From: Sphaerolaimus hirsutus
Taxonomy: Eukaryota; Nematoda; Chromadorea; Monhysterida; Sphaerolaimidae
Assembly (NCBI GenBank): GCA_964036195.1
Contig: OZ038456.1
Coordinates: 26,265,792-26,329,791 of the forward strand
Length of the DNA: 64,000 bases
Reading direction: 5' to 3'
A program made the position numbers and the translations under genes. This document shows positions 6,482-63,356 of this stretch, piece by piece (the stretch's first letter is position 1; each line of letters starts with the position of its first letter). The notes under the pieces are model-generated. The model saw nothing but the letters and a program-made list of their open reading frames with translations. It was not told the origin of the DNA and did no database searches.

Positions 6482-7222
6482 GAATCTGTGTATTCTGCGG
6501 TTTTTGTCTATACGGATCCAGAGAAGTTTGCCATGCACTGCTTTTCCCTATCACACTGCCTCGTTACCTGCTTGTCTCCGGTGTGCACTGCACAGGGCCC
6601 GGAGGTCCAAATTATGCCTTTCAAATTATGGGAATTTGTCCAAAGACCAGGTGCCGGTTCCGCAAGTGGACAAGTTAAGAGTTAAAAGTTAAGAGTTGAG
6701 TAAAATGACAAATGGCAAGTTAAGAGTAAAGTTAAATGATGAGTTAAGAGACAAGAGTAAAGTTAAATGACAAATGATTAGTTAAGAGATAAGAGTAAAG
6801 TTAAGAGTCAAGCAAGTGTATCCAAATCTTTTTTTGTATCCAAATCTTATTGTTTGTATCCAAATCTTATGTCAAAAAATAAGATTTGGATACAAAAACA
6901 TAAGATCTGGATATGAAAAAATAAGATTTGGATACACTTGCTTGACTCTTAACTTTACTTTTATCTCTTAACTAATCATTTGTCATTTAACTTTACTCTT
7001 AAATTTACTCTTGTCTCTTAACTCATCATTTATCATTTAACTTTACTCTTAACTTGTCATTTGTCATTTTACTCCACTCTTAACTTTTAACTCTTAACTT
7101 TTCCACTTGCGGAACTGGCCCCAGTTCTTTTTGCAGAGGGTGCAGTGATCTACTCAGAAATCACGCTGCTCTGTTTCCCGCGGCACACACAGCGCCTACA
7201 CCTAGCACAAGCAGCACAGTAA
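6482..7222 (+). CDS. Two-exon gene fragment with a palindromic intron, function unknown
   Basis: Exon 6482-6650 reads without stops and contains VYSAVFVYTDPEKFAMHCF and a spaced cysteine set (HCFSLSHCLVTCL, PVC). Its 5' limit is not resolved. A GT-AG palindrome (6651-7124) splits the codon after its first base, and the frame continues in 7125-7222 (starts LFAEGAVIYSEITLLCF) to TAA at 7220-7222. The open join across the intron is the main support. I recognise no family; the cysteine spacing is loosely PAN-like, which is a guess. It lies at the left edge of the 3.1 kb block that is missing from unit 2. Confidence 0.5.
6651..7124 (+). repeat. Palindromic GT-AG intron (introner-like)
   Basis: The 474-bp sequence is one inverted repeat: it starts GTGCCGGTTCCGCAAGTGG and ends CCACTTGCGGAACTGGCCCCAG read as its complement plus the AG. 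Arms of about 230 bp are built from aagttaagagtaaag words, with gtatccaaatcttat near the centre on both sides. The GT and AG lie in the terminal repeats themselves. Termini match those of the intron at 53206-53420, although most of the arm sequence does not. Confidence 0.8.
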
Positions 7223-10034: not shown

Positions 10035-10519
10035 AAAAGAAGAAACTGCTGATTTTCCATAAATATCGAAAGAAAAAATGGTCTCCAACAACTTACTGCT
10101 AACATGTTTGGTAAAGGTCTACGTTATCTATGATTTAAATGTGTTAACTCGTTTTTTATATCTCCTTTTGCTTTTGTTGAATGTCGGTGACTTCAATTGA
10201 TGTTCGACATGGAATAGTGCTTAAATAAGTTTATGAGAGAAGGCCAACATCGAAAATATACCTACAGTAATACCTACATTGAAAGCATCTTGTAATAGAA
10301 AAATTTGCCAAAAAAAAGCTGAGAGGGGCAGTAAGGTAAAATAACACTATTGACAATAAAAAGATGGTAATAAACAAGAACTAAAAAATTTTAAGGTGAA
10401 AATAAAGACCCCTACCATCACATTTGTTTAGTAATGAAAATAAAACACACACAATAGTAGCACTATTTTTCCTCACACACATAAAAAATTTAACATCAAA
10501 TTTATGACACTACAAACAG

Positions 10520-12184
10520 CCCATTTCACCCAAAGGTAGATCCACCCGGCATGAATCGTCTTCAAGTGATGTTCGTATCGGCAAAACGAGACTTTTACAA
10601 AGAAACACCATTAACGGATGAAGAAAAATACAAATATTTTCACTGGCAATCATATGTGAACAATGAAAAAATACCGATAAGCAGTGTGGATATGGACAGC
10701 TGGTGCCACTCACAGACCATGTAAAATACCATCTAAAATGTCAGGTGTCATGTAAAAGATCATGTAAAGTGTTATGTGTATCCAAATCTTATCCTCTAGT
10801 ATCCAAATCTCATATTTTGTATCCAAATGTTACATTTTGACATTATATTTGCATACAAAACATAAGATTTAAATACTATAAAATATGGTTTGGATACACA
10901 TGACCAGGGTTGGCAAAATCTCAGAAAAGAATAAAAATAAAATGGAAAATTGAAGAACAAAATAAAATAAAATAAAATGCAAAATTTCAAAATAACAATA
11001 AAAATTGTAGTAAACTTGAATTTTTGTAAAATTTTTGTAAAATTGTATACAAATTCATTTTTATGTAAGAATTGTATAAAAATTCATATGTTATTGTAAA
11101 AATTTGTTCTGTTGTTTATAGTTCAACCTGTTATTCGCGGAGCTGGGGCAGTCCCAAACCATGTAAAGTGTCAAAATGTCATATGAACTGGAATGGAAAG
11201 TGTCAAATTTCATGAAAATGTTAAGTAAAGTGTCAATTGTCATGACAAATATAAATTTAAGTGGAAACTGTAAAGCAATTGTATCCAAATCTTATCTTTT
11301 GTGTCCAAATCTTGTTGTTTTTGTAACCAAATCTTATGTGAACATTTGGATACAAAAACATAAGATTTGGATACCAAAATCTAAGGTTTGGATACCAAAA
11401 ATTAAGATTCAGATACACAATTTACACTCTGAACGACATTTGTCATGACAATTATACTTTGCTTGACATTCGTAATGCCAATTGACTCTTTACTACATTT
11501 GTCATGACAATTGACACTTTGCATGATGTTTTACAAATACGCCCAGCACACTCCAGTAATCCTTCTACTGAAAATGCAAACCATTCTTATCGATAATTGT
11601 AACTTAACACTTGGAACTAGCTAACAATACCTACTGCATGCAACTTTTGCAAAGTAATGGAAAAATTTGTCACACGTTTTTCATGTTTAGGTCTAATTAT
11701 CACATTTTTCTGACCTTGCATGCAAGATTCTGATTTTTTTGTAAATTTTTGTAAAATTTTTGTAAAATTTGTAAAATGGTAAAAATTTTGTAAAATGTAA
11801 AATGTAAAATGGTATTGCTTTTACATGACACAACGGTTTGCAGGGTCTTTTACATAGTCTGGGAGTGCCCCATGGTCAGATCATACCTGGGAAAAGAGAT
11901 ATCACTTTTTAGAGATCTGGGGACGGAATGGTTTGCTAGACAACTGGCATGAAACTGCTACATTAGCTGGTGTTTTCCAGTATCGTAAGTTCAACATCTT
12001 ATGTTGGGTAACTGATGTAATTGTTGCCAGTGTAGGTGTCGATTTTTAAACTTACTACACAATTTTGTAGGAAGTTTGACTCAACATATTATTTTTGACA
12101 TTTACAGATATTAGTTTGCAATTGCAAGCTTTATTTGAGTGTGCAAATCATAAGTGCCTGCCCAAGCACACAGTGAAATTTTAG
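10520..12184 (+). CDS. Three-exon gene, unknown family (unit 1 copy)
   Basis: Exon 1, 10520-10702, follows ctacaaacag and reads FHPKVDPPGMNRLQVMFVSA ... DFYKETPLTDEEKYKYFHW ... SSVDMD. Exon 2, 11866-11984, reads APWSDHTWEKRYHFLEIWG ... ATLAGVFQY and ends at gtaagt. Exon 3, 12108-12184, follows tttacag, reads ISLQLQALFECANHKC and stops at TAG. Phases agree (2 then 1) and the frame is open throughout. This is the 3' part of a gene of about 125 visible codons; upstream exons are not found. Intron 1 is a 1163-bp palindrome. The unit 2 copy (39105-40769) keeps frame, splice sites and lengths with few changes, which supports function until recently. No known domain recognised. Confidence 0.65.
10703..11865 (+). 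repeat. Palindromic intron, 1163 bp (unit 1)
   Basis: Starts GTGCCACTCACAGACCATG and ends in AGTCTGGGAG; the ends are complementary (gtgccactc/gagtgcc, agacc/gtct, atgtaaa/tttacat). Paired inner blocks include gtatccaaatcttat against aagatttggatac and several gtcatgacaa motifs on both strands. The only in-frame join I find uses GT at 10703 and AG at 11864-11865; the more canonical donor gtaaaatacc at about 10728 would not keep frame. Confidence 0.65.
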
Positions 12185-13601
12185 AAACTTTTGTTGTGAT
12201 TTCTACTGACCACACAATCACAACAACTTTTTTTTTGTAAGGGCATTTCCAGACTCTTAAAAATGTGATGCAAAGGCCAAGTAAAGTGTTGAGTCATGCA
12301 AAATGTAAAAAAAATTCTGTCTACCATTTCTCATTTGACATTTTTTACACTTTACTTGGGATGGCCAAAAAATCTTTTTTTCAAGGACAGTGTTGAAAAA
12401 AAATTTTTTCTTCTTCAGAACTCCCAGATATGGTTATGAGTCAACATATACAGGTATATCAGACAAATGACAGTAGTTTTTGGTGTTGCCATATAATGGC
12501 TGTTGATCATGTTGATATCCATTTTATGTTGATTTATTATGTATATCAGCTTTTGTCAAATGTTCATGACTTCAAGTGAGGTTGGCCATGGAATAGCGTT
12601 AAAATAAGGTTACAATAGACGGCTTTTTAAATAGCAGTGATTTTTCACAGTGTACAAGTATTGATCAGATATTATACGCTACACTCACATATCACGGCTA
12701 ATCATGACTAGTGATGTAAAGGCACCGGGGCACCGGTGCCCCGGTGCTGGGCACCGAAGGGCACCAGCACCGGTGCTGGTGCGGTGCCATTGCAATCTTC
12801 AGGGGTGCCATGCCGGTGCCGGTGCCATTTTTTTCAGAATAGCACCGGTGCCGGTGCGGTGCGGTGCCATTTTTTTGCTGGTGCCAAAGGTGCTAGCACC
12901 AGGGCAAAGTAAAAGGCACCGGGAAAGGCACCGGGGAAGGCTTCATGTGCTGTGCAATTTTGTCCATAGAATGTGCATATTCATATTTCAAAAAACAGCG
13001 ATATATTTACCCAACCGTTTTTGCATATTTTGTAAACCTCCCATCAAATAAATACTGTGAAATCCATTATACCCAATACGTGATCTGATGAGCGAATCTA
13101 AAATTTTCTTGAATTTTAAATCATTTTTATATTTTTTATTTATCTTACGTTTTTGTTCAAAATTTGTTGTCGGTTTATGATAGAGATAGTTCCATTCTCT
13201 GTACAGCAACGACTCCGATCAGTAGACAATAGTGGCTATGGACATTGTAATGAATTAAATATTTTATCTTTCATTTGAAATCGTTGTAATTGCTTCATAA
13301 AAGCGATTGCCACATCATTCTGATCATTTTAAGTGCTCAACCATCAAAATCGGTTGAAAATTCATGGAAATATGCACTTCCAAAGGTGAGACCACTGAGA
13401 AACTGCCCGATATTTACTTCAGAAATTCCAGCCCGGTGCGGTGCCTTTCGGTGCTAGCACCGGCAACCCGCCGGTGCCCTTCGGTGCCGGTGCCATTTTT
13501 TCCAAAAGGCACCGGTGCCGGTGCGGTGCGGTGCCATTTTCTGGCCGGTGACCCAGGGTGCCAGGTGCCCTTTTCATCCGTTGGCAAAGGTGCCGGTGCG
13601 G

Positions 13602-14720: not shown

Positions 14721-14978
14721 GACTAATTAAAGCTAATTGGTCACTCTTATTAAGTCGTCTCGCGCGAAATTTCATTGGAAATTGTTTTTCACAACTTGAG
14801 TCACACGCACGAGGTTACGGTAATACGGTTTTGGACGCAAAATCGTTAGTAGCGCGTGCATATTTACGTACGATTTTACAAGTACAAGTCACAATAAACG
14901 AAATATTTATATTTATTTTATTTCGTTCACAGCTAGCTACCACTTTGCTAATAAGCAATCAATTGATCAAGATTTGCT

Positions 14979-17900
14979 ATGGAGGAACGCGTACGCGCTC
15001 AGCGAGGTGCCTCCGCCGCCGCCGCTATGCCTATGGGCAACGTTGATGAGTCTGACACAACTCATCCGTTGACTCAACATAGCCGGGCGTTGACTGGGGT
15101 GCGCAACGGAGTGTTACGTTTCACATCCAAACCGATTCCAAAAATCGTCAAGGACGAGTCACAACCCGCCGCCGTAAACATACGCGCGGCGGAGGAAGTA
15201 TTGGAATTACTTCAAGCCTACGGCTACCAAGCTGAGATGAAACGCTCAGACCTGTCTGCGGCTATGGACAAATTCACAACTATTGTCCAAGATCACATCA
15301 CAAGCCTAGACAGAGACGAAGACGGTACGGCCGAGGAAATAAAGAGCGCCAACGCCAAATTGGAGCGCGCGCTCTACTCGGGCTCGAATAACGCGATGAT
15401 GCTCATGGATGAGCTGGAATCGAGGATGGCGACCGCCCAAGCGCAAATCAAATCCGCGGAAAGGTTGATACTTTCCCTGAAAGGTCAGTCAAATATTAAC
15501 GTTGATTTAATTACTCAACCCCCTTCACAACCCCCTTACAACATTGTCAATATGGGAAGTAGTTCTCAACCTTCACAACCGGAAACTTTATTAAAGTTAC
15601 CTAAGATCGAGCTTGCTAAATATAACAGTGATCCGTTAGAATGGGCAGCTTGGTGGGAGATTTTTCGAGCTCAAATTCACGACCGAGCTAATTTGTCAAC
15701 TGGTATGAAATACACATACCTCAAGCTCAGCCTTACCGGTCCAGCAGCGGAACTGCTGGCCGGATTAAAAGGTGATGGTCGAGATTACAGTACTGCGGTC
15801 ACCATGTTACAATCAAACTTTGGTGAAACGCATCGGGTACAAGCCGCCCTTTGGGATAAATTGTACTCACTTGAAAAACCTTCGTCAAGAGGAGACTCTC
15901 TCACAAATTTCACACGAACCCTTTTGTCAACTCTCAATCAACTTAAAGAAAGGGGTGAAAGTGTCGATTCTGGTGCAGTGTTAAGAATAATTCGTGGTTA
16001 TCTCCCCGATAATATTGTTCTTGCCGTCACAGAAGAACACCGGAATTCGATGCGCACTGCAGCAACCGACGACACAGAACTCACAGTCGTCAGGTTTGTT
16101 GATGCATTAACTACCATTGCTCGTGCTCGTTTAGATGCGATGAAAACTGAACCACAAAATTCACAATCTTCAAATGTTGTTCAGAAATCACAAAATTCAT
16201 CGTCAAAAAAGCCACAAAATGGAGGAGGTTGGCAACAGCAAAAGAAAAAGGGAAATAAATCACAAAATACCTTTTCAAAACAAAAACCTATTCACAATAC
16301 GGTTGCTTTTGCTGGTACAAATGCTAATGCTGGTAAATCACAAGGAAAAAATAAAAATTCCACTCAACCTCCCAGAACTCCCGCGATCGGAGCGATTAGT
16401 CAAAAGCAACCCTCACAACCTGCTGCTGACTATCGCAAGCCGAAATTCGAGTGCTTGTTCTGCGGCGTCAAAGAGCACTACACAACCGACTGCCCTCAAT
16501 ACGTCACACCGAGAGAGCGCACCGAACGGTTGCAAGCTTTGGGCGACCTGTGCACGCGCTGCACGCGCAGGGGCCATCAAGCGGCACAGTGCACTCAACG
16601 ATTGAGTTGCTACTACTGTCGCCAGATTGGTCAGCATCACGGGGCGTTCTGTCCTACCAGACAGGCACCCGCCAGGCGTCAGGTAAACAATTCACAAAAT
16701 AAAGCCTTTGTCAAACCAACGAGCGCTAATTTTGTCAATGCTCAGGTTATCACAACGGGCGCGGCTTCGTCACATGCACCGCCATCGTATCCGCCTTCAC
16801 ACACGGAACCGATGAGCGTCGGTATCATCCCCCCGGATGAGAACGATTTCCGCTGGCAACAGCAGACGCTGTACCAAATGGATATGGACGGCCCGCTCGA
16901 CATGGGCGAATGGCCGAGGCCCGCTAACGCGCAACAGGCGAAAGCTCAAGAAGAAGCCCGCATCTATCACAGCGAAAATGAGCTGTGGACGACGCTCCGC
17001 GCCAGCCTCATCAAGGACGGCATGGACATGGAGACCGTCGAAGCCAAAATCCGCGGCTTCCAGCAGAAACGGTACGAGGTGTACCCACACCTCAACCCGA
17101 ACCAAATGTCATCGTCGGTGCCACTTCAACCCAGTCACAGGCCCACGGTGGAGGTGCTGAGCGCACAGGCGGGTTACGGTAACCCCAATACCGCTACCAG
17201 GCAGCAGGCCGAACAAGAATGTGAGTTCGATTTTGCACCTATTGTTCGTTTGCAAGTGGCCCAGGCTTCATTAATTAACAAAGACGCCGAATTAAATCGA
17301 GTCACAGACCCTTTGTTAATATTCTTTGACACTGGATGCGAATATTCATACATTAAAGCATCTGTGGCAAATGAGTATAACTTTGAAAACAAAGAAGACG
17401 TTGTTCTTCAAATGAACGTGTTTGCGACAAAAACGCCTGTCACAGTCAATACGTTTTTGGTCGAGGCTGTCATGCCTATTTACAAACACGTCGACAATAA
17501 GGGCAATATGTTACAAATTCCGCTCACTTTACGTGCAGTGGATAATTTGGCAACATATGCATGCCCACCTCCTTTGTCACAAGATGACAAAACAGTCATT
17601 TATATTGTGTATGGTGAACATGCACAAGAACAATTCGCGGAACCGCTTGAATTGACCGAAATGACTGATGAGTTTTGTCACAAATTATGTCAACCAGATG
17701 TAGTCATTGGTCAAGACTATTATTGGAAGTTCGACATTCGACCAACAGAAATCGAACTCCCATCTGGATTGATCATAGTCGAATCAATACTTGGATTGAT
17801 GCTTGGTGGAAATGCGTCATCACAATCATTTGTCACAACACCCGACATTTCACCACATCAATTCATGGTTTCATGCAGTTCACATGCTTCATCAGCAGTT

Positions 17901-20900
17901 GCTGTTGGCCAAGAGACATTATTTCAATTTCACAGTCTCGAGTCAATAGGTATCACAGATGACCCATTATCACATGATGACGACATAGCTGAACAGTTAA
18001 TTCTGGAATCAATTACTCTTGATCCGGAAACTGGTCGCTATAGCGTAGATTGGCCATTCAAATCAACAATTCAAGAATTGCCAACCAACAATGCAGAAGC
18101 ATTTCGCCGCTTTCTGTCACTGTTGAAACGGTTTCGAAAAGATCCCGATTTATTCGCTACATACGCGAAAGTCATCTCCGATCAACTTCACAAGGGTGTC
18201 ATAGAAACCGTCTATGGTTCACAAGATGGTTTGCAAGAACACATCTTACCTCACCAACCTGTCCTCACACCTGGCAGATCGACAACATGTCGAATAGTGT
18301 ATGATGGTTCTGCGGGCAAGCCCAGTCTCAACAATTGCTTATTTCGAGGCCCAGTTCTCACACCACTGGCGCTCGGATTAATGCTTCGCTTCAGAGCCGG
18401 AAAAGTAGTGTTATTGGCAGATATTGAGAAAGCATTTTTACAAATTGCTCTTCACCCAAAATCACGCGCTTTCACAAAATTTTACTGGCTGCGTGATGAC
18501 ACTATTCCGTCTCATGAAGACAATATTCAAATGATGCAATTCACAAGAGTGCTGTTTGGTCTCACATGCAGTCCATCCATTCTGTCAACTGTCATCAAAT
18601 ATCACCTCGAAGCGGAATTAGCTAACATGCATCCCGCTGAGACCAATGAACGAATGAAACTGGAGCTGTTGCTCAACAGCATTTACGTTGATAATTTAGT
18701 TATCAGCGTAGATGATGACAAATATGCAATACAGCTCTATCGTTTAATTAAAGCTGTTTTTGCAAGAGCAAATTTCAACATGCGCGAATGGATGACAAAT
18801 TCGCCTATGGTCTCGGAAAAAATCAAACCCGAGGACCTCAACCCGAAAAAGTCACAATATCTCAAAGTAATGGGTCTCGTTTACGATCACATTGAAGACA
18901 CCATTGCGGTGCCAGCTCCCAAGAAAGATTTCACGCTCATTGTCACAGCCACGCGCCACAATTTGAATAAATTGCTGGCTTCAACATACGATCCTATTGG
19001 CGTCACAGCACCCGCGTTATTTCGGTTGAAATTTCGCGTGTCACAAATAATTCAAAGGTGCAATGTCACAACCTGGGATGAACTCATTGAAGACCCAGAG
19101 GCGGATGACTTACTGGACGATTTAAAACGTCATCTTTCGTCCATTAGTCAAATCAAATTTCCGCGCTCATTTCATTCCTTTGGCATCGATGTCAAAGCTG
19201 TCACAAGGCCATTAGAATTACATGTGTTTTGTGATGCCTCAAAAGATGGATACGCAGTTTGCGCTTATTTGCGTCAAAAAGCGATTTCACCTGACGAAAA
19301 TGGCTATGAAGATGACCGATATTTTTGTGGTTTTCTCACAGCTCGCACAAAACTAGCCCCACTTCCGTCAAAACAAGGTCAACCCCTCACAATCACACGC
19401 TTAGAATTGCTAGGTGTCACAATTGGAGCACAGCTCATCGATTATTTACATCATGAACTCGTTGAGCTGGGTGGATGGAAAATTCACAGTAATTTCCTCT
19501 GGACCGATAGTACAGTTGTCATCGGCTGGCTGTACACGGCAAAGCCGCTGGCTACTTTTGTCAACAATCGGGTCACAAAAATCCATTCACTAATGTCAAA
19601 ACATTGCATTCAAATTTGCAAGGTTGCTACAAAAGACAATCCAGCTGACATCGCGTCACGGGGTTGTACTTTTGATCAACTAATGATCGAAACAATGTGG
19701 TTCACCGGACCTACATTCCTCGCTGAACCCCTCACATCAACCATGCTTGACATTTCGCAATATCAAGCGCAACCTGTCACTGAAGAGCTTGCAAAAGGCG
19801 ACACTCACATCAGTCGACCTTTATATGCTGGAGCAGTAACTTCACAGCCTGTTTCACAGCCTGATTCACAACCAGCTAATGCTCTTGCACAGCAAGTACC
19901 TGTCACATTGGACCCCAATTTGTCACAAAATGTCACTCCTCAAAATCCGTTTGTCGAAAGTCGACAACGTCACATCCCTTCAAATCCATTCGAAATCGAC
20001 ATTCGACGATTTTCAACACTGTCAAAATTGTTGCGTACTGTCGTTTATCTGCTTCGTGTCAAAACATATTGGCTAAATCGCTCTATGCATAAAGCTGCAA
20101 AGCGTGAAAGCGAATACTTGTCAAAACCCATCACACAAGCTGATTTAAACGAAGCATTTAGACATGTATTGCGCATTTCACAAGCAGAAGAATGCGCCAG
20201 TTGCATTTCACAAGCGCAACTTGGCAAACACCATATGCTCAAATGGGACGCGTGGAACAATTTATTATATTGTGTCACACGTGTGTCTCACAAAGAACAC
20301 CGAAACCCTTCGTTGTTTTACTACCTTCCAAAAACTGGATGGTTAACAACGCTAGTGGTTACTCATTTTCATGAGCTTGCTGGTCACAGTGGCATGCTTC
20401 ACACTTTAGCAGATTTACGCGAACACTGCTGGTTGTCAAGTGCCAAGCAGGTAGTTGCAAAAATTTTGCGAAAATGTGTCACATGCCGCAAAGCGGAAGG
20501 AGGTCCATTCACATTACCTGATTTTCACACATTACCTGTCACTCGAACTCAATCTCAAATCAAGCCATTTCAACACATTGGCATTGATTTTATGGGACCG
20601 TTAGTTTATTCACAAAACGGAACCCGTCACAGTCAACACATTTTATTACTCACATGCTTCAGTACACGCGCCATTCATTTAGAGTCAACTAATAGTGTCT
20701 CGACAGCCGACACAATTATGGCTCTAAATCGTTTTATTTCACGTCGAGGCATGCCGGACACAATTTGGTCCGACAATGCCCCAGCATTCAAAAATTGTGT
20801 CAAAATGCTACCGGACGTAAAATGGCACTTTATCACAGCCAACAGTCCTTGGCAGGGTGGCGTGTACGAACGCATGGTCGGCTTAGTCAAACGCTTGCTC

Positions 20901-23900
20901 AAAAAAGCATGCGGCCGACGTTGTCTCACATGGCATGAATTCCTCACAGTCATGCTAGACGTCGAATTCTCCGTCAATACGCGACCATTGTCATACTTGT
21001 CAAACACAGACATTGGTGCAGCGATACTGCGCCCAATACATTTTCTTTGGGGCACCCCACCACCATGTTACATGGATGAAAAACGTGAGTTGGAACTCGA
21101 TTCCACCACGATTGAACCCATGCGAAAAATTCCAAAAGAAGAATGGGAACGAATGACGGATGGATCTTTCAACCTCACACCCTCACAAATCGAAAAAACT
21201 TACACACTCACACCCCCACGAGTCAATGACGTCAATTGTATTGATGAAATTGCACTCAACTCTGTGCCTGAAAAGGACAGAGACGACATCACATTACTTT
21301 GGGACCAAATTCGTCACAATCGTGAAGTGCTTTGGTATGAGTGGTCACGTCAATACATTGACCTACTCAAAGATCAAGCTAAAAATCAACGCTTGAAAAA
21401 AGGCACAATCAACGAGGCTCCCAAACGTGGCCAAGTGGTGTTAATCACAGATGATAAACAGCCACGCGGCATGTGGCAAATGGGCCGCGTTCACGAAATA
21501 CACGTGTCAAGCGATGGTAAAATACGTGCAGTCACAGTATTGTCAAGCAACGGCCGTCGCACACGTAGATCCCCATCTAACCTAGTGCCTCTTGAAATCG
21601 ACACAGAGGACGGTGTTGAATATAAAATCGACACTGAGGTAAAAGATGATGATAATTCACAACCTCCACCTGATAAAGGTGATGATTCACAAACAGATCC
21701 ATTGCATCAACAATCACAATCTTCACAACAGGATGCTAGACGCGCAAACCCACGCCGAACATGTCGCTACACTGGCACATATTCGTTCTGGGGAAACGTG
21801 TCGCATTTAATGGCGCTTTCGTTGCTAATACAATCAAAATTAAGCAACGTGCTTACATGGACAGATCAATATCACAAAACTTTTAATCTGTGCCATAAAA
21901 CACGCACTGGTCACGCAATTCAACTTCCGGAAAAAGTAACATGTCACTTTCCCAAAGTTGCGACCATAGAGGATATTGTGGTGTCCATATGGACGTTGCG
22001 TGATCAGCCGCAAACGACACCAATTTATAGATGCTTTCAACAGGAGCATACTATAGTCACGTATATGAGTCTGGTGGGCGGAAAAGCTATGCTGCCACCA
22101 GAAATCATTAAAAATCACAGAGTCACAACCTACGATTGCATGATCGCCTACCAAAATAAAACTTGGAAAGGCGAACCCTTAATAAAAATCGGTCATGCAT
22201 TGTGGAGCACTAACAAATCACTTCACATCGATTATTGTTACTTTTGTCACAACATGAGTAACACAGTAATGAACTTTCACATAGAGGAAGGTGGAGTTGC
22301 AAGTCTTGACGGAAAGAAAATAGTTTCCGAAATTCAAGATTTGTCACATTGCAACCCACAATCCGGCTATTGTTATGACAGCGACAATGGCGTCTCTTTA
22401 TGGAATGCTACTGCCTTTAACAAGCAGTGTGCATTCCAAGAGATTGGTCAATTCGATGCGCAATATTCACAAAATCACTACATAGTGGAAAAATTGCAGG
22501 CTGCATTCTCAGTCACATGGAGATCACAAAAATTCCCAAATAATGCAGAATGCGTGCCACAAGACGCAAAATATATTGACCAAGGCTCGGCATTCATTCA
22601 ATTTCTTCGATATCAACTTAAGAAATTGAAAAAACCTGAAACCGAAAAAGCTCCTCTTCATTTCAAACTCGCACCAAATCTCGATGTTGGTGTGTTTCAC
22701 TTGCTCACAGCCCGTCAACAATACGAAGTTGACAAAATTGCACATCTAGAACAAAAACAATTTGGATCAATCTGGCAACAATTATGTCACATCCGTCAGA
22801 CCCAACTAGATATAATTCATGCAATTGTCACATTCAATCCCACACTTGGCTTGCGAGCATTGCTAGGACGTCAAAATCTCTATGCTGAATGGCATGGAGA
22901 TATATTAATGTTCTGGGATTGTAAACCAGTCACAGCAGAAATTATTTATTTTCAACATGAATATAACAATACATGTTATAAATTTCTGCCGGTCAAAGTC
23001 ACAAATCACCCACACATTATGTTCGTTGCTCCTGGTACCAATGATCTGATCACACATTCACCAATAGATCATTGTCTCATGAAAGATCACAAATATTATC
23101 AATTAAATGATAATTCATGGGCCAACGAAAATGGACCAACAAATTTGCACGTCACAAACCTCCCAATCGAATTAATTTGGGCTGGCTCGTGGAAACCATT
23201 CACACTAAATGTTTCCGGGTCACCAGGTGAGAGCATGACTGATATTGCATTCAGTATCATGGCTGCACATCATCACTTTCAAAATCTGCAACGACTCGAA
23301 CAACAAGTCACACGTTCAGTCGATTATATTGCAACAAAATCCAACGACCCTAAGGCAGTGCAAGCATATATTGCTGGCATTGGCCAAGGAGTTGGTGCAT
23401 ATTTTGAAGGTGTAGGAAAAGAATTGGGTCACATTATTCACGGTAGTGTCACAGGTGGTGCGTCTGCATTAGACACGTTACTTACTGGGCCACTTCAAAC
23501 AGCTGTGAACATTATACTCATCATTATCACAATTGCTTGTATTGGGTATATTGGTTATGTTTACATGCAGTGGCGGCTCGTAACCGGCAGGGGTATGCTG
23601 CCAGACATCAAGGGCTTTTTCCGAAGAAAGGGCAGAAGGGACAGACACCCAAACAAATGGGAACCCAGTCCATTCAACAAGGAAAAATCGGTAAGCGACG
23701 GCGACGAAACCGCCAGAAGAAACCGAAAAGCGGCTTCAACAAACCCGCTTTGTCAAATCAAACCGTCACACAATCGTCAAGTTCGTCACAGTCACCTTCA
23801 AAGTTTGTCACACCCCTCAAGCGAGTTTCTCCATTCAAACGGCTTTCAGGACGCTCGGTACAGCCTAGATCGGATCCCCCGGTCGGTTATAGTACCGAAC

Positions 23901-24680
23901 GCGCCGAGGAAATCGAAATGGAGACGGGTGCACGCCGGGTCACAAAACCTGCACCCCCCTGCGAGTCCCAACCGCAGACCGCAGAGATCAAACGCCAGAC
24001 TCACAGTCACCGAGCCTGTCACAACGGAAGTCACAATGGAAGACGCGATCCCTGACCGCGAGCCCTTGCAAAAGCGACTCAAAAGATTCGCTGGAGTCGC
24101 AGGGCTCCCATGTGAGCAGCAATCGTCACACCAGACATTTTCCTTTATACCCCAAACTTTTCACAAATTCAATAACATCAATAAAAAATTGGTCAAATCA
24201 AAAGTTAAACGATCTAAAAAGATCTGTGACCTTCCTCAAACAAACACCTTCACAGTCCGACATAGAAATCGGAGAGATGGAAGAAAGTCACGATCAAGAT
24301 CTAGATCCCCCTCCGTACCAATTGACCAAGTCAACTCAATCACTTCACAGTGTACGACCTCATTCACAACCTCCCATGTCCCCTTGCTATCAAGCCAACC
24401 GCTTGCAGCATCGGAACAATGGCAGCCCACCGAGCCGTCGAAGACGATCGTCGACGAGACCGACGCGCTCCGACAAGCCTTCGAGAGGCTCGCCAAGGAA
24501 TCTGAGAAGCTCCCCAACTGGCCGGGCAGACCAGCGGGGGCCCCAGACAACCAGGCGCCCGGACACGGGGAAGGCAGCCAGCCTGAGGAGGATGCCGTCA
24601 AACCCATGGACGAGCATCATGAGGAGGGCCGGGAAAATGCCGGCGGCGAGGACGCCGACGATCTGCTACCACAGGAGTGA
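14979..24680 (+). CDS. BEL/Pao polyprotein Gag-PR-RT-RH-IN-Env-like (3233 aa)
   Basis: Single frame from ATG to TGA. Gag core (about residues 205-370) has the Pao-type signature KIELAKYNSDPLEWAAWW; PPSY at 601-604 is a possible budding motif. Three zinc knuckles lie at about 488-557 (CLFCGVKEHYTTDC, CTRCTRRGHQAAQC, CYYCRQIGQHHGAFC). Protease FFDTG has its Asp at 784. RT has ADIEKAF (Asp 1148) and YVDN (1236-1239) in place of YVDD. RNase H has Asp 1419 (FCDAS) and Asp 1510 (WTDS). Integrase has an HHCC zinc site (about 1796-1836), Asp 1870, Asp 1932 (WSDNAP) and Glu 1964 (YERM), then a Pao-type tail (about 2145-2207). An envelope-like region follows: hydrophobic leader about 2270-2295, Cys-rich ectodomain, Gly-rich pre-membrane stretch from 2800, transmembrane helix about 2842-2866, then a long basic-to-acidic tail. 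Cleavage between IN and Env, or a spliced env mRNA, is not visible. Confidence 0.92.
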   Translation: MEERVRAQRGASAAAAMPMGNVDESDTTHPLTQHSRALTGVRNGVLRFTSKPIPKIVKDESQPAAVNIRAAEEVLELLQAYGYQAEMKRSDLSAAMDKFTTIVQDHITSLDRDEDGTAEEIKSANAKLERALYSGSNNAMMLMDELESRMATAQAQIKSAERLILSLKGQSNINVDLITQPPSQPPYNIVNMGSSSQPSQPETLLKLPKIELAKYNSDPLEWAAWWEIFRAQIHDRANLSTGMKYTYLKLSLTGPAAELLAGLKGDGRDYSTAVTMLQSNFGETHRVQAALWDKLYSLEKPSSRGDSLTNFTRTLLSTLNQLKERGESVDSGAVLRIIRGYLPDNIVLAVTEEHRNSMRTAATDDTELTVVRFVDALTTIARARLDAMKTEPQNSQSSNVVQKSQNSSSKKPQNGGGWQQQKKKGNKSQNTFSKQKPIHNTVAFAGTNANAGKSQGKNKNSTQPPRTPAIGAISQKQPSQPAADYRKPKFECLFCGVKEHYTTDCPQYVTPRERTERLQALGDLCTRCTRRGHQAAQCTQRLSCYYCRQIGQHHGAFCPTRQAPARRQVNNSQNKAFVKPTSANFVNAQVITTGAASSHAPPSYPPSHTEPMSVGIIPPDENDFRWQQQTLYQMDMDGPLDMGEWPRPANAQQAKAQEEARIYHSENELWTTLRASLIKDGMDMETVEAKIRGFQQKRYEVYPHLNPNQMSSSVPLQPSHRPTVEVLSAQAGYGNPNTATRQQAEQECEFDFAPIVRLQVAQASLINKDAELNRVTDPLLIFFDTGCEYSYIKASVANEYNFENKEDVVLQMNVFATKTPVTVNTFLVEAVMPIYKHVDNKGNMLQIPLTLRAVDNLATYACPPPLSQDDKTVIYIVYGEHAQEQFAEPLELTEMTDEFCHKLCQPDVVIGQDYYWKFDIRPTEIELPSGLIIVESILGLMLGGNASSQSFVTTPDISPHQFMVSCSSHASSAVAVGQETLFQFHSLESIGITDDPLSHDDDIAEQLILESITLDPETGRYSVDWPFKSTIQELPTNNAEAFRRFLSLLKRFRKDPDLFATYAKVISDQLHKGVIETVYGSQDGLQEHILPHQPVLTPGRSTTCRIVYDGSAGKPSLNNCLFRGPVLTPLALGLMLRFRAGKVVLLADIEKAFLQIALHPKSRAFTKFYWLRDDTIPSHEDNIQMMQFTRVLFGLTCSPSILSTVIKYHLEAELANMHPAETNERMKLELLLNSIYVDNLVISVDDDKYAIQLYRLIKAVFARANFNMREWMTNSPMVSEKIKPEDLNPKKSQYLKVMGLVYDHIEDTIAVPAPKKDFTLIVTATRHNLNKLLASTYDPIGVTAPALFRLKFRVSQIIQRCNVTTWDELIEDPEADDLLDDLKRHLSSISQIKFPRSFHSFGIDVKAVTRPLELHVFCDASKDGYAVCAYLRQKAISPDENGYEDDRYFCGFLTARTKLAPLPSKQGQPLTITRLELLGVTIGAQLIDYLHHELVELGGWKIHSNFLWTDSTVVIGWLYTAKPLATFVNNRVTKIHSLMSKHCIQICKVATKDNPADIASRGCTFDQLMIETMWFTGPTFLAEPLTSTMLDISQYQAQPVTEELAKGDTHISRPLYAGAVTSQPVSQPDSQPANALAQQVPVTLDPNLSQNVTPQNPFVESRQRHIPSNPFEIDIRRFSTLSKLLRTVVYLLRVKTYWLNRSMHKAAKRESEYLSKPITQADLNEAFRHVLRISQAEECASCISQAQLGKHHMLKWDAWNNLLYCVTRVSHKEHRNPSLFYYLPKTGWLTTLVVTHFHELAGHSGMLHTLADLREHCWLSSAKQVVAKILRKCVTCRKAEGGPFTLPDFHTLPVTRTQSQIKPFQHIGIDFMGPLVYSQNGTRHSQHILLLTCFSTRAIHLESTNSVSTADTIMALNRFISRRGMPDTIWSDNAPAFKNCVKMLPDVKWHFITANSPWQGGVYERMVGLVKRLLKKACGRRCLTWHEFLTVMLDVEFSVNTRPLSYLSNTDIGAAILRPIHFLWGTPPPCYMDEKRELELDSTTIEPMRKIPKEEWERMTDGSFNLTPSQIEKTYTLTPPRVNDVNCIDEIALNSVPEKDRDDITLLWDQIRHNREVLWYEWSRQYIDLLKDQAKNQRLKKGTINEAPKRGQVVLITDDKQPRGMWQMGRVHEIHVSSDGKIRAVTVLSSNGRRTRRSPSNLVPLEIDTEDGVEYKIDTEVKDDDNSQPPPDKGDDSQTDPLHQQSQSSQQDARRANPRRTCRYTGTYSFWGNVSHLMALSLLIQSKLSNVLTWTDQYHKTFNLCHKTRTGHAIQLPEKVTCHFPKVATIEDIVVSIWTLRDQPQTTPIYRCFQQEHTIVTYMSLVGGKAMLPPEIIKNHRVTTYDCMIAYQNKTWKGEPLIKIGHALWSTNKSLHIDYCYFCHNMSNTVMNFHIEEGGVASLDGKKIVSEIQDLSHCNPQSGYCYDSDNGVSLWNATAFNKQCAFQEIGQFDAQYSQNHYIVEKLQAAFSVTWRSQKFPNNAECVPQDAKYIDQGSAFIQFLRYQLKKLKKPETEKAPLHFKLAPNLDVGVFHLLTARQQYEVDKIAHLEQKQFGSIWQQLCHIRQTQLDIIHAIVTFNPTLGLRALLGRQNLYAEWHGDILMFWDCKPVTAEIIYFQHEYNNTCYKFLPVKVTNHPHIMFVAPGTNDLITHSPIDHCLMKDHKYYQLNDNSWANENGPTNLHVTNLPIELIWAGSWKPFTLNVSGSPGESMTDIAFSIMAAHHHFQNLQRLEQQVTRSVDYIATKSNDPKAVQAYIAGIGQGVGAYFEGVGKELGHIIHGSVTGGASALDTLLTGPLQTAVNIILIIITIACIGYIGYVYMQWRLVTGRGMLPDIKGFFRRKGRRDRHPNKWEPSPFNKEKSVSDGDETARRNRKAASTNPLCQIKPSHNRQVRHSHLQSLSHPSSEFLHSNGFQDARYSLDRIPRSVIVPNAPRKSKWRRVHAGSQNLHPPASPNRRPQRSNARLTVTEPVTTEVTMEDAIPDREPLQKRLKRFAGVAGLPCEQQSSHQTFSFIPQTFHKFNNINKKLVKSKVKRSKKICDLPQTNTFTVRHRNRRDGRKSRSRSRSPSVPIDQVNSITSQCTTSFTTSHVPLLSSQPLAASEQWQPTEPSKTIVDETDALRQAFERLAKESEKLPNWPGRPAGAPDNQAPGHGEGSQPEEDAVKPMDEHHEEGRENAGGEDADDLLPQE
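21787..24680 (+). other. env-like: Envelope-like region of the BEL polyprotein
   Basis: After the integrase tail and a Gln/Ser/Asp-rich linker comes a hydrophobic segment (VSHLMALSLLIQ) that could act as a signal peptide, about 545 residues of ectodomain with many Cys and Asn-X-Ser/Thr sites, then GIGQGVGAYFEGVGKELG (2800-2817) and a helix IILIIITIACIGYIGYVYM. A Gly-rich amphipathic stretch just before the anchor recalls class III fusogens (herpesvirus gB type, also reported in glycoproteins related to Chuviridae captured by insect BEL elements). That link rests on general architecture only. The tail after the anchor is unusually long, about 365 residues. Confidence 0.6.
23537..24055 (+). CDS. 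Overlapping open frame with an Arg/Lys-rich block (172 codons)
   Basis: This frame differs from the polyprotein and overlaps the membrane anchor and tail. It contains GKRRRRNRQKKPKSG, a Ser-rich stretch, and ends at a stop at 24055. In a mostly AT-rich element an alternate frame open for 172 codons is unlikely but possible by chance, since the region lacks TAA/TAG words in general. If expressed, for example by splicing as in complex retroviruses, the basic block could bind RNA or direct nuclear import. No start context or splice acceptor is proven. Confidence 0.3.
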   Translation: MYWVYWLCLHAVAARNRQGYAARHQGLFPKKGQKGQTPKQMGTQSIQQGKIGKRRRRNRQKKPKSGFNKPALSNQTVTQSSSSSQSPSKFVTPLKRVSPFKRLSGRSVQPRSDPPVGYSTERAEEIEMETGARRVTKPAPPCESQPQTAEIKRQTHSHRACHNGSHNGRRDP

Positions 24681-38901: not shown

Positions 38902-39104
38902 CACTATTAACAATAAAAAGATGGTAATAAACAAGAAGTAAAAATTTTGAAGGTGAAAATCTATAAATAGGTATGAAAATAAAGACCCCTACCATCACAT
39001 TTGTTTACTAATGATAATGAAAGACACAATAGTAACTTCCAGGCACAGGTTTTTGCTCACACACATAAAAAAATGTAACATCGGATTTACGACACTACAA
39101 ACAG

Positions 39105-40769
39105 CCCATTTCACTCAAAGGTAGATCCACGCGGCATGAATCGTTTTCAAGTGATGTTTCTATCGGCAAAACGAGACTTTTACAAAGAAACACCATTAAC
39201 GGATGAAGAAAAATACAAATATTTTCACTGGCAATCATATGTGAACAATGAAAAAATACCGATAAGCAGTGTGGATTTGGACAGCTGGTGCCACTAACAG
39301 ACCATGTAAAATACCATCTAAAATGTCAGGTGTCATGTAAAAGATCATGTAAAGTGTTATGTGTATCCAAATCTTATCCTCTAGTATCCAAATCTCATAT
39401 TTTGTATCCAAATGTTACATTTTGACATTATATTTGCATACAAAACATAAGATTTAAATACTATAAAATATGGTTTGGATACACATGACCAGGGTTGGCA
39501 AAATCTCAGAAAAGAATAAAAATAAAATGGAAAATTGAAGAACAAAATAAAATAAAATAAAATGCAAAATTTCAAAATAACAATAAAAATTGTATAAAAC
39601 TTGAATTTTTGTAAAAATTTTGTAAAATTGTATACAAATTCATTTTTATGTAAGAATTGTATAAAAATTCATATGTTATTGTAAAAATCTGTTCTGTTGT
39701 TTATAGTTCAACCTGTTATTCGCGGAGCTGGGGCAGTCCCAAACCATGTAAAGTGTCAAAATGTCATATGAACTGGAATGGAAAGTGTCAAATTTCATGA
39801 AAATGTTAAGTAAAGTGTCAATTGTCATGACAAATATAAATTTTAGTGGAAACTGTAAAGCAATTGTATCCAAATCTTATCTTTTGTGTCCAAATCTTGT
39901 TGTTTTTGTAACCAAATCTTATGTGAACATTTGGATACAAAAACATAAGATTTGGATACCAAAATCTAAGGTTTGGATACCAAAAATTAAGATTCAGATA
40001 CACAATTTACACTCTGCACGACATTTGTCATGACAATTATACTTTGCTTGACATTCGTAATGCCAATTGACTCTTTACTACATTTGTCATGACAATTGAC
40101 ACTTTGCATGATGTTTTACAAATACGCGTAGCACACTCCAGTAATCCTTCTACTGAAAATGCAAACCATTCTTATCGATAATTGTAACTTAACACTTGGA
40201 ACTAGCTAACAATACCTACTGCATGCAACTTTTGCAAAGTAATGGAAAAATTTGTCACACGTTTTTCATGTTTAGGTCTAATTATCACATTTTTCTGACC
40301 TTGCATGCAAGATCCTGATTTTTTTGTAAATTTTTGTAAATTTTTTGTAAAATTTGTAAAATGGTAAAAATTTTGTAAAATGTAAAATGTAAAATGGTAT
40401 TGCTTTTACATGACACAACGGTTTGCAGGGTCTTTTACATAGTCTGGGAGTGCCCCATGGTCAGATCATACCTGGGAAAAGAGATATCACTTTTTAGAGA
40501 TCTGGGGACGGAATGGTTTGCTAGACAACTGGCATGAAACTGCTACATTAGCTGGTGTTTTCCAGTATCGTAAGTTCAACATCTTATGTTGGGTAACTGA
40601 TGTAATTGTTGCCAGTGTAGGTGTCGATTTTTAAACTTACTACACAATTTTGTAGGAAGTTTGACTCAACATATTATTTTTGACATTTACAGATATTAGT
40701 TTGCAATTGCAAGCTTTATTTGAGTGTGCAAATGATAAGTGCCTGCCCAAGCACACAGTGAAATTTTAG
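39105..40769 (+). CDS. Three-exon gene, unknown family (unit 2 copy)
   Basis: Exons 39105-39287, 40451-40569 and 40693-40769 have the same lengths, splice words and stop as the unit 1 gene at 10520-12184. Visible substitutions are few (Pro to Ser, Pro to Arg, Leu to Phe, Val to Leu in exon 1; Met to Leu near the exon end; His to Asp in exon 3) and none breaks the frame. Both copies intact suggests either recent duplication or selection. Upstream exons are not seen. Confidence 0.65.
39288..40450 (+). repeat. Palindromic intron, 1163 bp (unit 2)
   Basis: Same length as the unit 1 intron 10703-11865, starting GTGCCACTAACAGACC and ending AGTCTGGGAG, with only scattered substitutions. The palindromic structure therefore predates the duplication. 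Confidence 0.65.
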
Positions 40770-53154: not shown

Positions 53155-55208
53155 CTGATGAATTTCTACAAAGGAAGCCACATTATCTTATGAGAAATGC
53201 GCCAGGTGCCAGTTCCGCAAAATGAGAAGTGAGAAGTGAAATGGCAAAGGCGAAGTCAAAGCGCAAAGGCGAGGGGAAATGGCAAGTGAATTGGCAAGTG
53301 AAATGGCGAAAGCGAATAGAAATTACTCTTTTTTTACTTCGCTTTTGCCAATTCACTTGCCGTTTCACTTCCCCTTTGCCATTTCACTTATCACTTCTCA
53401 TTTTGCGGAATTGGCCCCAGAGCACTGCAAGGCTGAAGTTGAGGAATATGGTTTGTTTGCCTCTACTCTGAACAGTTCAAATGACAAATATGGATTATGG
53501 AGCCATGGCATTTACTACCGTATTTGCTTGAATAATCCCCCATGGGGGATTATTTTTTCGTCGGACTTTTTTGTTGGGGATTTTTCAAGGGGGGAATTAT
53601 GTTACAGGGGAATAATAAATGGGTCTAAATAAATATGGGGGTCTTAATTACGGGTCTCAATTTTAAATCAAGTTTCTATCAATTCGTTTTGCAAAAGGCC
53701 ACTTTTGCTATTACCACGTTATTACAACATATTTGTGTTCAAATTGAACACAAATTTATCAAATGCCTAAAATTCGTATTCGACGGCCTCAGCGTCAGCG
53801 TACATACACACACATACACGTGTATTTTTGTTCCATCTCCGGTGGTAGGATCCATTCACGTTCCATTTCTGCATACCGGAAGAAGTACTGCATTTCCATT
53901 AGATGAATCAAACCAGACAGAGCTATTTTGCTTGGTCTGGCTTCATCGATTATTTTTTTAAAGATGTGAAGTATTTTTAGTCCATCTGGCGGGGGGATTA
54001 TTCAAGGGGGGTGGTTCTCACGGTTCACGCGTCTAGAGGGGTTATTCGAGGGGGGAATTATTCGACGGGGAGGGAATTATTCCAGCAAATACGGTAAATT
54101 ACCTTTAAATAACCCTACGTTATGCAATCTATATAATCCAAATTTCCTGGCATCAGCATACCGCATTACCTCGAATTAACCCCCCTTGAATTAAACCCCC
54201 TCGAAATACCCCCCCCCCTAAAATTCGGCTCAGGAAATAATACCCCACCCCCCCTCGAAATATCCCTCTAAAATTGAGTGTAAAGAGAACGTACATGACA
54301 GATGCCACAGTTTGTGATATGTACAATGCAGAACACACGTTAAAACAGATGATTGAGTGATGTTAGGGAAGGGTTTATGTATATATATATATATGTATTT
54401 TCAAATTTTGCTGGCGAAATAATAAACCCCCTGGGGGTATTTCGAGGTAATACGGTAGTCACATTAATTCCAGTTCAATAAAATCCTAGAAACTACTTTT
54501 TGTTGATGGGGTTAAACTTGTTTGGTCCCAGTGTGTAATATTTCTAAAGTGCCAATATTAGCATTTCTTGGGACAATTTTAAAAAAACTTGAAGAGTCAC
54601 AAATATTCTCAGACATAATACACCTGTGGGATTTGACAATTTCTAAGCCCCTTAAATTGTTCAACAGTACCTCATCCCATTATACTTTCAAATGTGGGTA
54701 ATGATAGACTATTTTGGAAACAACTTGAAAACTGTTAAAAAAACACCAGACAGTTTGTTTGAATGTAGTTTGAAAAGGCCCATATGGTAAAAAATAGTTT
54801 GAATCATTTTGAATCTCATGTGGAAAATAACTACTTAGCTGAACTAAATAATTCACTTAATCACAGCTGGCAAGGACTTACAACACAAAATGAAGGAAAT
54901 GACCAAAGATGGAATGTGTGGTCACAAAGACTTCATAACCATGTGAGTGCCCATAGCAGAGTAGATTTCTATTGGCCAATTTGGTATTTTTACCTTTTTT
55001 CAATTTTGCATGACAGATAATGACTTTAAAAGCAGTTTTCGGTGTATCGCAAATGGGTCTGGAAAGCACTGCTAACTGTAATACATTGAGTATAAATGAA
55101 ACAATTTTTAATGCTCACCTGAATTATTTCAGCATTGAGTATCACTCAATTCAAAGAAAGTTTGACAAAACTCTAGAAGCCCCAGCAGAAGCATTATTTC
55201 AGTTTTGA
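53155..55208 (+). CDS. Gene A: multi-exon gene of an unrecognised, probably extracellular family
   Basis: Exons: 53155-53205 (DEFLQRKPHYLMRNAP), 53421 to about 53515 (EHCKAEVEEYGLFASTLNSS ... GLWSHGIY), 54562-54697 (FLGTILKKLEESQIF ... HYTFKCG), 54867-54942 (QGLTTQNEGNDQRWNVWSQR) and 55017-55208 (LKAVFGVSQMGLESTANC ... PAEALFQF, TGA). Phases match between exons 3-4 and 4-5; donors gtaatg and gtgagt, acceptors attag, cacag, gacag. Exon 2 runs into a TACCGTATTTG element (53516-54096), so its original donor is unclear. Paralogue B (62490 onward) shares exons 1, 2, part of 3 and the acceptor of 4. Asn-X-Thr sites and Trp/Cys content suggest a secreted or surface protein. No domain recognised; 5' exons missing. 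Confidence 0.6.
53206..53420 (+). repeat. Palindromic GT-AG intron of gene A (215 bp)
   Basis: Starts GTGCCAGTTCCGCAAAATG and ends CATTTTGCGGAATTGGCCCCAG as complement. Arms carry gagaagtgaaatggcaaag words and complement ctttgccatttcacttctc. It splits codon GAG after its first base; removal joins AP to EHCKAEV. The last bases lie entirely within the inverted repeat. Confidence 0.82.
53516..54096. mobile_element. TACCGTATTTG-type MITE in gene A
   Basis: taccgtatttgcttgaataa at the left, attattccagcaaatacggt at the right; internal G-tracts and a stretch (53650-53990) unmatched elsewhere, where a frame of 108 codons is probably accidental. It interrupts or abuts exon 2 of gene A. Confidence 0.75.
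54159..54457. mobile_element. TACCGCATTACC-type MITE in gene A intron
   Basis: Starts taccgcattacctcgaatta and ends atttcgaggtaatacggta, with C-tracts, gaacgtacatgacag and gcagaacacacgttaaaaca in the middle as in 27897-28342. Confidence 0.8.
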
Positions 55209-62489: not shown

Positions 62490-63356
62490 CTAATGAATTT
62501 GTACAAAAGAAGCCACATTATCTTATGAGCGATGCACCAGGTGGCAGTCCCAAGCCCTGTAAATTGTTATGTAAAGTGTCAAATGTAAAGTCAAATGCAA
62601 AGTAAAGTGTCAATTGTCATGCAAAGTTACGTAAAAATTCTTTTGTTGTTTTGTTTTGATTGACAGTTTACCGTATTTTTTCAGAGTGAGAATTTTGAGG
62701 GGGTTTTAAACGAGAGGGGGGGGGGGGCATTTCGAGGGGTGGGGTTCATTATTTCGCCAGAAATTATTTGAAATCCCAGTACAATATTTGTCGTCTGAAA
62801 CGTACGCAGACGTTGAAAAATGCAACAAAAATTGCCATTTATAAGACTCTAAAGACTTTTATACCTAAGTGTGTAGATGAATAAACACTGTTCATACATA
62901 ACAGAGTCATCGTTTTTAACGTGTGTTCTGCATTGCCCGGATGACAAACCGCAGCCTTTATTGTCATTTGCGTTCTCATACACTAAATTGGGGGGGGGGT
63001 ATATCGAGGGGGGGTTTATAAGTCCATAGTGTCCATTTTGAGGGGGTATTTTGAGGGGGGGGGGGTATTTCAAGGGGGGTATTTCGAGGAAATACGGTAC
63101 CTTGCATTTGACATTTTACCTTACACTTTACAGGGCTTGGGACTTCCCCCCAGAACACTGCAAGGCTGAAGTTCAGGAAAATTGTTGGTTCGGTGAAAAT
63201 TCTAATTTTTTATATCACAAAACACAAGTTTTCACCCAAAAACTTAGGATTTTTAACCAGAAGCAATGTTTCACATTTATTGGGACAGTTGAAAGAATTG
63301 TGGGGAGAACAAATATTCTCAACACAATATCCCCTATGGGATTAAACAAATTTTAA
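62490..63356 (+). CDS. Gene B: paralogue of gene A, partly degraded, 3' part beyond the window
   Basis: Exon 1, 62490-62540, reads NEFVQKKPHYLMSDAP and has the same 51-nt length as in A. After the intron 62541-63153, exon 2 reads EHCKAEVQENCWFGENSNF ... TQVFTQKLRIF and continues without a visible acceptor into FTFIGTVERIVGRTNIL, which matches exon 3 of A, then stops at TAA (63354-63356) where A is open. Loss of the exon 2-3 intron boundary and the stop suggest a pseudogene or a different gene model. Homology to A resumes after a MITE and reaches the exon 4 acceptor (cactcacag, 63993) at the window edge. Confidence 0.5.
62541..63153 (+). repeat. Palindromic GT-AG intron of gene B (613 bp) with a nested MITE
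   Basis: Starts GTGGCAGTCCCAAGCCCTG, ends CAGGGCTTGGGACTTCCCCCCAG as the complement plus AG. Arms have gtaaagtgtcaaatg / catttgacattttac words. A TACCGTATTTT-type MITE (62669-63099) fills the centre. Position and phase are identical to the intron of gene A, but beyond the first few bases the arm sequence is different. Confidence 0.8.
62669..63099. mobile_element. TACCGTATTTT-type MITE in gene B intron
   Basis: taccgtattttttcagagtg at the left and gtatttcgaggaaatacggt at the right, G-tracts, centre with aacgtacgcagacgttgaaa and acgtgtgttctgcattgccc as in other copies. Confidence 0.8.

What the first reader, a model, noticed from the sequence alone, without database searches (positions are those of the whole stretch)
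6651..7124. Introns that are whole palindromes with splice sites in the terminal repeats
At 6651-7124, 53206-53420 and 62541-63153 (and in a related form at 10703-11865 and 39288-40450) an open frame is interrupted by a sequence that is one inverted repeat, begins GTGCC or GTGGC and ends in AG, with both splice sites inside the terminal repeats. Removing it joins frames precisely (phase 1 in three cases, phase 2 in two). The 6651 and 53206 copies share GTGCC(A/G)GTTCCGCAA ends but have different arms. This is the signature expected of introner-like elements, transposons that create introns; in metazoans these are known from few lineages (for example larvaceans).
Basis: partly seen in the sequence, partly recalled or inferred. 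Interest (0 to 1): 0.88.

Follow-up and report, generated by a model that had tools for sequence, protein, structure and literature searches.

The report
Palindromic transposons that become introns
Small hairpin-shaped mobile DNA elements in this animal-like genome carry an intron-start signal at one end and copy an intron-end signal from the spot they land in, so a copy that falls into a gene in the right direction looks like a ready-made intron.

Summary
The palindromes are real. They are MITEs of several families with 3-bp CWG target duplications at ACC(A/T)GGTC sites, the duplication of NuwaI (PIF/Harbinger-like) transposons. One end begins GTG, the other usually GGG. With a CAG duplication and the GT end first, a copy reads CAG|GT...CAG|, a ready GT-AG intron: donor from the element, acceptor from the duplicated target. 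The best intron cases lie outside the window: a FANCJ-like helicase exon and a granulin domain are each split by a copy exactly at the CAG, and their joined halves align to known proteins without a gap. In the window, 10703 and 39288 are one duplicated event; 53206 and 62541 sit at one position in related sequence but hold different families; 6651 is unproven. Most sampled copies show no coding context, and CAG and CTG ends are near equal genome-wide (family A 1557:1719; family C 1399:1207). So this looks like a widespread MITE that yields introns when it hits coding DNA the right way round. No RNA evidence, transposase or species name could be obtained.

The parts
6648..6650 (+). 5' copy of target duplication CAG
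   Evidence: sequence
6651..7121 (+). family A MITE, GT end first (GTGCCGGTTCCGC ... GCGGAACTGGCCC); candidate intron 6651-7124, coding status unproven
7122..7124 (+). 3' copy of target duplication CAG; supplies acceptor AG
10341..12708 (+). copy 1 of a segmental duplication (copy 2 at 38898-41293, 96.4% identical) that contains the 10703/39288 elements
10703..11870 (+). family C-like element (GTGCCACTC... / GGGGCACTC...), flanked by CTG (5') and CATG (3'); proposed acceptor GGGAG ending at 11865 lies in the end repeat
39288..40455 (+). second copy of the same insertion, carried by the duplication
53155..53205 (+). putative 51-nt coding exon ending ...CCAG (no homologue found)
   Evidence: 80% identical over 85 bp to 62456-62540
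53206..53417 (+). family A MITE, 212 bp, strong hairpin; with CAG at 53418-53420 would form a GT-AG intron, phase 1
53418..53420 (+). 3' copy of target duplication CAG (5' copy 53203-53205)
53421..53443 (+). start of putative downstream exon (EHCKAEVE); related to 63154 onward
62490..62540 (+). putative related exon ending ...CCAG
62541..63150 (+). family B element (GTGGCAGTCCCAAGCCCTGT ...) at the same position as the 53206 element; CAG at 63151-63153
63154..63176 (+). start of putative downstream exon (EHCKAEVQ)

Best explanation
The elements are non-autonomous DNA transposons (MITEs), probably moved by a PIF/Harbinger-group transposase of the CWG-duplicating kind (NuwaI in PMC4482050). They insert at a palindromic ACC(A/T)GGTC target and duplicate its central CWG. 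Their two ends differ: one begins GTG, the other usually GGG. When the duplication reads CAG in the element's GT-first direction, the product is exon-CAG|GTG...pyrimidine-rich arm...CAG|exon: a GT-AG intron with its donor in the terminal repeat and its acceptor in the duplicated target, whose removal restores the original frame. The hairpin would bring the two splice sites together. Insertions in coding DNA are kept mainly when they have this form; elsewhere the elements sit as ordinary MITEs. SHOWN: ends, duplication, target motif, empty sites, exact in-frame splitting of conserved domains. INFERRED: splicing, the transposase, selection against the other orientation.
For: Ends and duplication: of 79 GT ends in 69 loci plus the window, 68 were paired; 39 of the 68 had identical flanking triplets, all CWG (20 CAG, 19 CTG); target consensus ACCWGGTC (a few loci are near-duplicates of each other). 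Empty sites: repeat copies in L025, L006 and L014 carry a single CAG where L020 carries the element between two. End asymmetry GT/GG in 40 of 43 family A pairs with CWG on both sides (loci chosen by the GT end) and in 4 of 4 B/C pairs not chosen by their own ends. Split genes: L078, 189 bp, joined 70 aa align without a gap across the junction to FANCJ, E 1.1e-5, with acceptor-like and GTGAGT donor sequence at the outer ends; L028, 277 bp, joined granulin domain 45 bits against 28.3 for the first part, gapless to two solved granulins. Without homologues: L009, 178 bp, ATG-to-stop frame of 157 aa that would stop at codon 101 if unspliced, by a rough read-through; L062, 154 bp; L080 and L081 (L080 by eye after a one-base shift of its 3' end). 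Hairpin of 53203-53420: -132 kcal/mol, z -17.6. Family C has more CAG than CTG, 1399:1207, p 0.0002. Open frame across the junction: CAG sense against all other orientations p 0.009.
Against: No RNA reads. Family A has more CTG than CAG, 1719:1557, p 0.005, the opposite of what strong retention of introns predicts. CAG against CTG sense frame openness gave p 0.18 at first; with more loci (window left out) p was 0.054 overall, 0.029 for the A subtype (25 v 23) and 0.43 for the G subtype (10 v 12); A-subtype cut-off tests gave 0.11, 0.036 and 0.15, all uncorrected for several tests. Some CTG or antisense copies also lie in open frames (L021, L046, L028 + strand) and would need non-canonical splicing or are not genes. 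Codon changes between the 10703 and 39288 copies are 1 synonymous, 4 not. The transposase search did not complete. 29 of 68 pairs lack a perfect duplication.
Confidence: 0.8

Rival explanations
1. Ordinary MITEs that only by chance sit where open frames seem to continue; no intron function.
For: Most sampled copies have no evident coding context; family A shows no CAG excess. Window frames have no homologues found.
Against: Exact gapless joining of FANCJ and granulin at the CAG; a 157-aa ATG-stop frame broken only by one element.
Confidence: 0.12
2. Pre-existing introns into which MITEs inserted and then, by deletion, became the whole intron.
For: Two different families occupy one position at 53206 and 62541; some copies sit at or 12-13 nt after donor-like sites (L036, L082, L075, L076; my reading).
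Against: In L078, L028, L009 and L062 the intron would be exactly element plus one CAG, with the other CAG as the exon end; no remnant of an older intron is seen.
Confidence: 0.08
3. Recently broken genes (pseudogenes) whose coding sequence was interrupted by unspliced MITEs.
For: No expression data; the 10703/39288 copies show 4 of 5 codon changes non-synonymous.
Against: Frames are open on both sides of the best cases, and the clearest coding hits are CAG-sense; in sets of ten I judged 3 of 10 CAG and 0 of 10 CTG copies to break coding sequence (unblinded).
Confidence: 0.1

Closest known systems
Introners / introner-like elements (PMC9860276: passages and section 7 read)
   Same: Non-autonomous DNA transposons, some with TIRs and target duplications, that form introns; one splice site from the element and one from the duplicated target (the Chrysochromulina arrangement: carries the 5' site, co-opts the 3' site); some insertions add codons, as the 10703 copy would.
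   Different: Here the duplication is 3-bp CWG, the element is a near-full palindrome with unlike ends, and most sampled copies show no coding context. The paper's main text does not contain the word Harbinger; it states that among animals and land plants introners were found in only two groups, both animals.
NuwaI group of the PHIS (PIF/Harbinger, ISL2EU, Spy) superfamily (PMC4482050: passages read)
   Same: 3-bp CWG target duplication, TIRs, mainly animals; empty sites confirm the duplication.
   Different: Intron formation is not mentioned in the passages read; no transposase was tested here. Recalled, not looked up: zebrafish Harbinger3 uses a similar palindromic target containing CACCWGGT.
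GA/GG-donor introns of the copepod Eurytemora affinis (PMC5714493: whole text read)
   Same: Recent large-scale intron gain in an animal, donors preceded by AG.
   Different: No transposon origin is proposed there; the elements here would use GT.
Larvacean non-canonical introns (PMC13326754: listing and passages read; Fritillaria work recalled)
   Same: Introner transposons are mentioned as a possible source of weak splice sites in a metazoan.
   Different: Those introns mostly escape the GT-AG rule; these would obey it.

Membership tests
Introner | Many dispersed, sequence-similar copies, a set of which are introns | tested here: inconclusive
   Dispersed copies met: 3484 exact end hits. Introns by anatomy only: FANCJ, granulin and further split frames
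Introner | Intron ends coincide with element ends / target duplication | tested here: met
Introner | Spliced from transcripts | not testable with these tools
   no RNA data
Introner | Absent at the same coding site in relatives | not tested
   no relatives of this genome are held; repeat-embedded empty sites only
Introner | Enriched in genes / in the splice-competent orientation | tested here: inconclusive
   family A CTG excess, family C CAG excess; frame tests p 0.18 and 0.009, 0.054, 0.029, 0.43
NuwaI / PHIS (PIF/Harbinger-like) | 3-bp CWG target duplication | tested here: met
   39 of 68 pairs identical and all CWG; empty sites
NuwaI / PHIS (PIF/Harbinger-like) | TIRs starting with G or A (stated in PMC4482050 for the PIF/Harbinger group) | tested here: met
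   GTG.. / GGG.. ends
NuwaI / PHIS (PIF/Harbinger-like) | Related DDE transposase and Myb/SANT ORF in the genome acting on these ends | not tested
   PF13359 search not answered

The most novel reading that the evidence does not exclude
A PIF/Harbinger-type transposase whose target palindrome ACCAGGTC contains the proto-splice motif (C)AG|GT spreads MITEs with a fixed GT end, so each sense insertion at such a site makes a GT-AG intron at a proto-splice site. Target choice, not later selection, would then explain why new introns here lie at CAG|G. Several families (A, B, C) with unlike inner repeats keep the same GT/GG end asymmetry, and at 53206/62541 two of them may have made an intron at the same exon position. 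Antisense copies (GG...CAG) might even be a source of GG-AG introns (L046).
Probability: 0.35. Interest if true: 0.8.

Novelty: new variant of a known kind. Interest (0 to 1): 0.62.

Why it matters
Introners were reported from only two animal groups in a survey of 3,325 genomes (PMC9860276). A CWG-duplicating element that carries GT at one end would link a named transposase group to intron birth and give a mechanical reason for introns at the long-debated proto-splice site. Over 2,600 counted ends in each of two families, with CAG and CTG within 16% of each other, make a natural experiment in which the CTG orientation is a built-in control for selection on splicing.

Tried and rejected
Pfam, PDB and protein-database searches with window frames found nothing significant: 10703 in all three, 53206 and 6651 in Pfam only. 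L009's protein also found nothing (Pfam, protein database). A DNA search for uninterrupted copies of the 53206 exons found only the window's own places, so an empty coding site was not shown for them. Rfam: 0 hits in the window at gathering scores. A viral-contig scan for the GGG end of family A found 0. Chance as an explanation of the shared ends is rejected by the reversed-pattern control. An element confined to the splice-competent orientation is rejected: 20 CAG and 19 CTG perfect duplications. Naming the organism failed: the cytochrome oxidase searches and the one 18S search did not complete. A copepod (because of possible AG|GA donors) is only a guess.

Full report
What is there. The window lies in a 348-Mb genome of 762 contigs. 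At 6651 and 53206 there are hairpins with ends GTGCC(A/G)GTTCCGC... and GGGCC(A/G)(A/G)TTCCGC..., flanked on both sides by CAG. At 62541 and 10703/39288 there are elements with related but different ends (GTGGCAGTCCCAAGCCC and GTGCCACTCACAGACC). The 15-base end GTGCCRGTTCCGCAA occurs 1766 + 1718 times in the genome; its reversed control occurs once.

Transposon anatomy. I read 69 loci chosen by that end, in list order along contig 1 except one taken out of order (L009), plus the window; a few loci are near-duplicates (L006/L008, L022/L023, L026/L027). Of 79 GT ends 68 could be paired with the opposite end and 11 could not. Triplets on the two sides were identical in 39 of 68, always CWG: 20 CAG and 19 CTG. 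The other 29 are mismatched or shifted (9 CTG/CAG against 3 CAG/CTG among them). The empty-site consensus is ACC-W-GGTC. For element L020 the repeat it landed in is present elsewhere without the element, with a single CAG, in L025, L006 and L014. So insertion can be precise and duplicates 3 bp. A CWG duplication characterises NuwaI transposons of the PHIS (PIF/Harbinger) superfamily in PMC4482050 (passages). The ends differ in their second base, GT against GG, in 40 of 43 family A pairs with CWG on both sides (one GT end is there by selection of loci), and in 4 of 4 pairs of families B/C, whose loci were not selected by those ends.

How it would make an intron. In the GT-first direction with a CAG duplication the sequence reads exon..CAG|GTG....CCC CAG|exon. 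The donor is the element's first dinucleotide; the acceptor is in the duplicated target. The original reading frame is restored exactly. With a CTG duplication no acceptor is made there. The transcript of 53203-53420 folds at -132 kcal/mol against a mean of -57 (sd 4) for shuffles, which would hold both splice sites side by side.

Evidence that copies are introns. (1) L078: a 189-bp family A element splits an exon with acceptor-like GTTCCAG before and GTGAGT after it. The joined 70 residues align without a gap across the junction to the Fanconi anaemia group J helicase (E 1.1e-5). The Pfam helicase profile itself covers only the downstream part and is below its cut-off (22.3 against 25.3 bits). 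(2) L028: a 277-bp element splits a granulin domain; joined 45 bits, first part alone 28.3; gapless against two solved granulins. (3) L009: a 178-bp family B/C element is the only interruption of an ATG-to-stop frame of 157 residues; read through unspliced it stops at codon 101. It has no homologue found. (4) L062 (154 bp), L080 and L081 join long frames without significant profile hits (L080 after a one-base shift at its 3' end, by eye). In sets of ten A-subtype copies each, picked from the listings before their sequence was seen but not strictly consecutive, I judged 3 of 10 CAG copies (L078, L080, L081) and 0 of 10 CTG copies to interrupt coding sequence in the sense direction (unblinded; one CAG copy was unpaired and one CTG pairing, L087, is doubtful). 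Of six family C CAG copies one (L098) may do so.

Evidence against a gene-bound element. Genome-wide, family A has 1557 CAG and 1719 CTG ends (p 0.005 towards CTG), and family C 1399 CAG and 1207 CTG (p 0.0002 towards CAG). Only the triplet before the GT end is counted. In the listed part of contig 1 up to 21.2 Mb, counted by hand, the A subtype is 56:55 and the G subtype 29:45, so the CTG excess may come from the G subtype. Frame openness across the junction was not different between CAG and CTG at first (p 0.18, 23 against 18, families A and B), although CAG sense exceeded the other orientations pooled (p 0.009). After adding the sets of ten, and leaving out the window, near-duplicates and short flanks, it was 255 against 189 nt (p 0.054, 35 against 35); 252 against 156 nt (p 0.029) for the A subtype and no difference (p 0.43) for the G subtype. 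These tests are weak and uncorrected. Copies with the wrong orientation in apparently open frames exist (L021, L046).

The window cases. 53206 and 62541 lie in related sequence: 80% over 85 bp upstream and 88% over 35 bp downstream, with the element between. They read NAADEFLQRKPHYLMRNAP|EHCKAEVE and NLANEFVQKKPHYLMSDAP|EHCKAEVQ. The same position holds a family A element in one and a family B element in the other. Either two insertions hit the same site, or one element replaced the other. No third copy was found by DNA search. 10703 and 39288 are one duplicated event; their exons differ at 5 codons, 1 synonymous and 4 not, so coding is not established. 6651 has open frames on both sides but no support and an alternative acceptor 12 nt downstream.

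Judgement. By anatomy the elements work like introners. They meet the anatomical tests for introners and the duplication test for NuwaI-type MITEs; splicing and the transposase remain unproven. As a kind this is known; the pairing of a CWG target with a GT end, in several families, is the new part. My paper searches combining introner, intron gain or MITE with Harbinger, proto-splice site, sponge, larvacean or copepod terms showed no such link in the titles and abstract starts listed; the library lacks most subscription papers and all preprints.

Noticed in passing
L009:3713-4775, L019:3824-4778, L005:1340-1727: Elements inserted directly at the ends of other elements; the CCCCAG/CCCCTG end seems to recreate the target, giving tandem nests.
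   Followed up: partly
68 paired family A elements: Mismatched triplets are lopsided: 9 CTG/CAG against 3 CAG/CTG. Unexplained.
   Followed up: no
family A G subtype, contig 1 listings: CTG excess (29:45 up to 21.2 Mb, p 0.08), opposite to intron selection.
   Followed up: partly
L046:693-930: Element in antisense within a membrane-protein-like frame with CAG duplication; splicing would need a GG donor. No Pfam match.
   Followed up: partly
window 53443 and 63176; L012 minus strand 2957: Conserved exon ends read AG|GAA or AG|GAT, possible GA donors as reported for the copepod Eurytemora affinis (PMC5714493).
   Followed up: no
L036, L082, L075, L076: Elements at, or 12-13 nt after, donor-like CAG|GT sites, as expected if the CAGGT target overlaps native 5' splice sites.
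   Followed up: partly
window 14967-24680: One 3237-aa open frame that looks like a retroelement polyprotein (recognised from memory, no search made).
   Followed up: no
window 61213-62120: Another long inverted repeat (394-nt arms, 89%), of a different kind.
   Followed up: no
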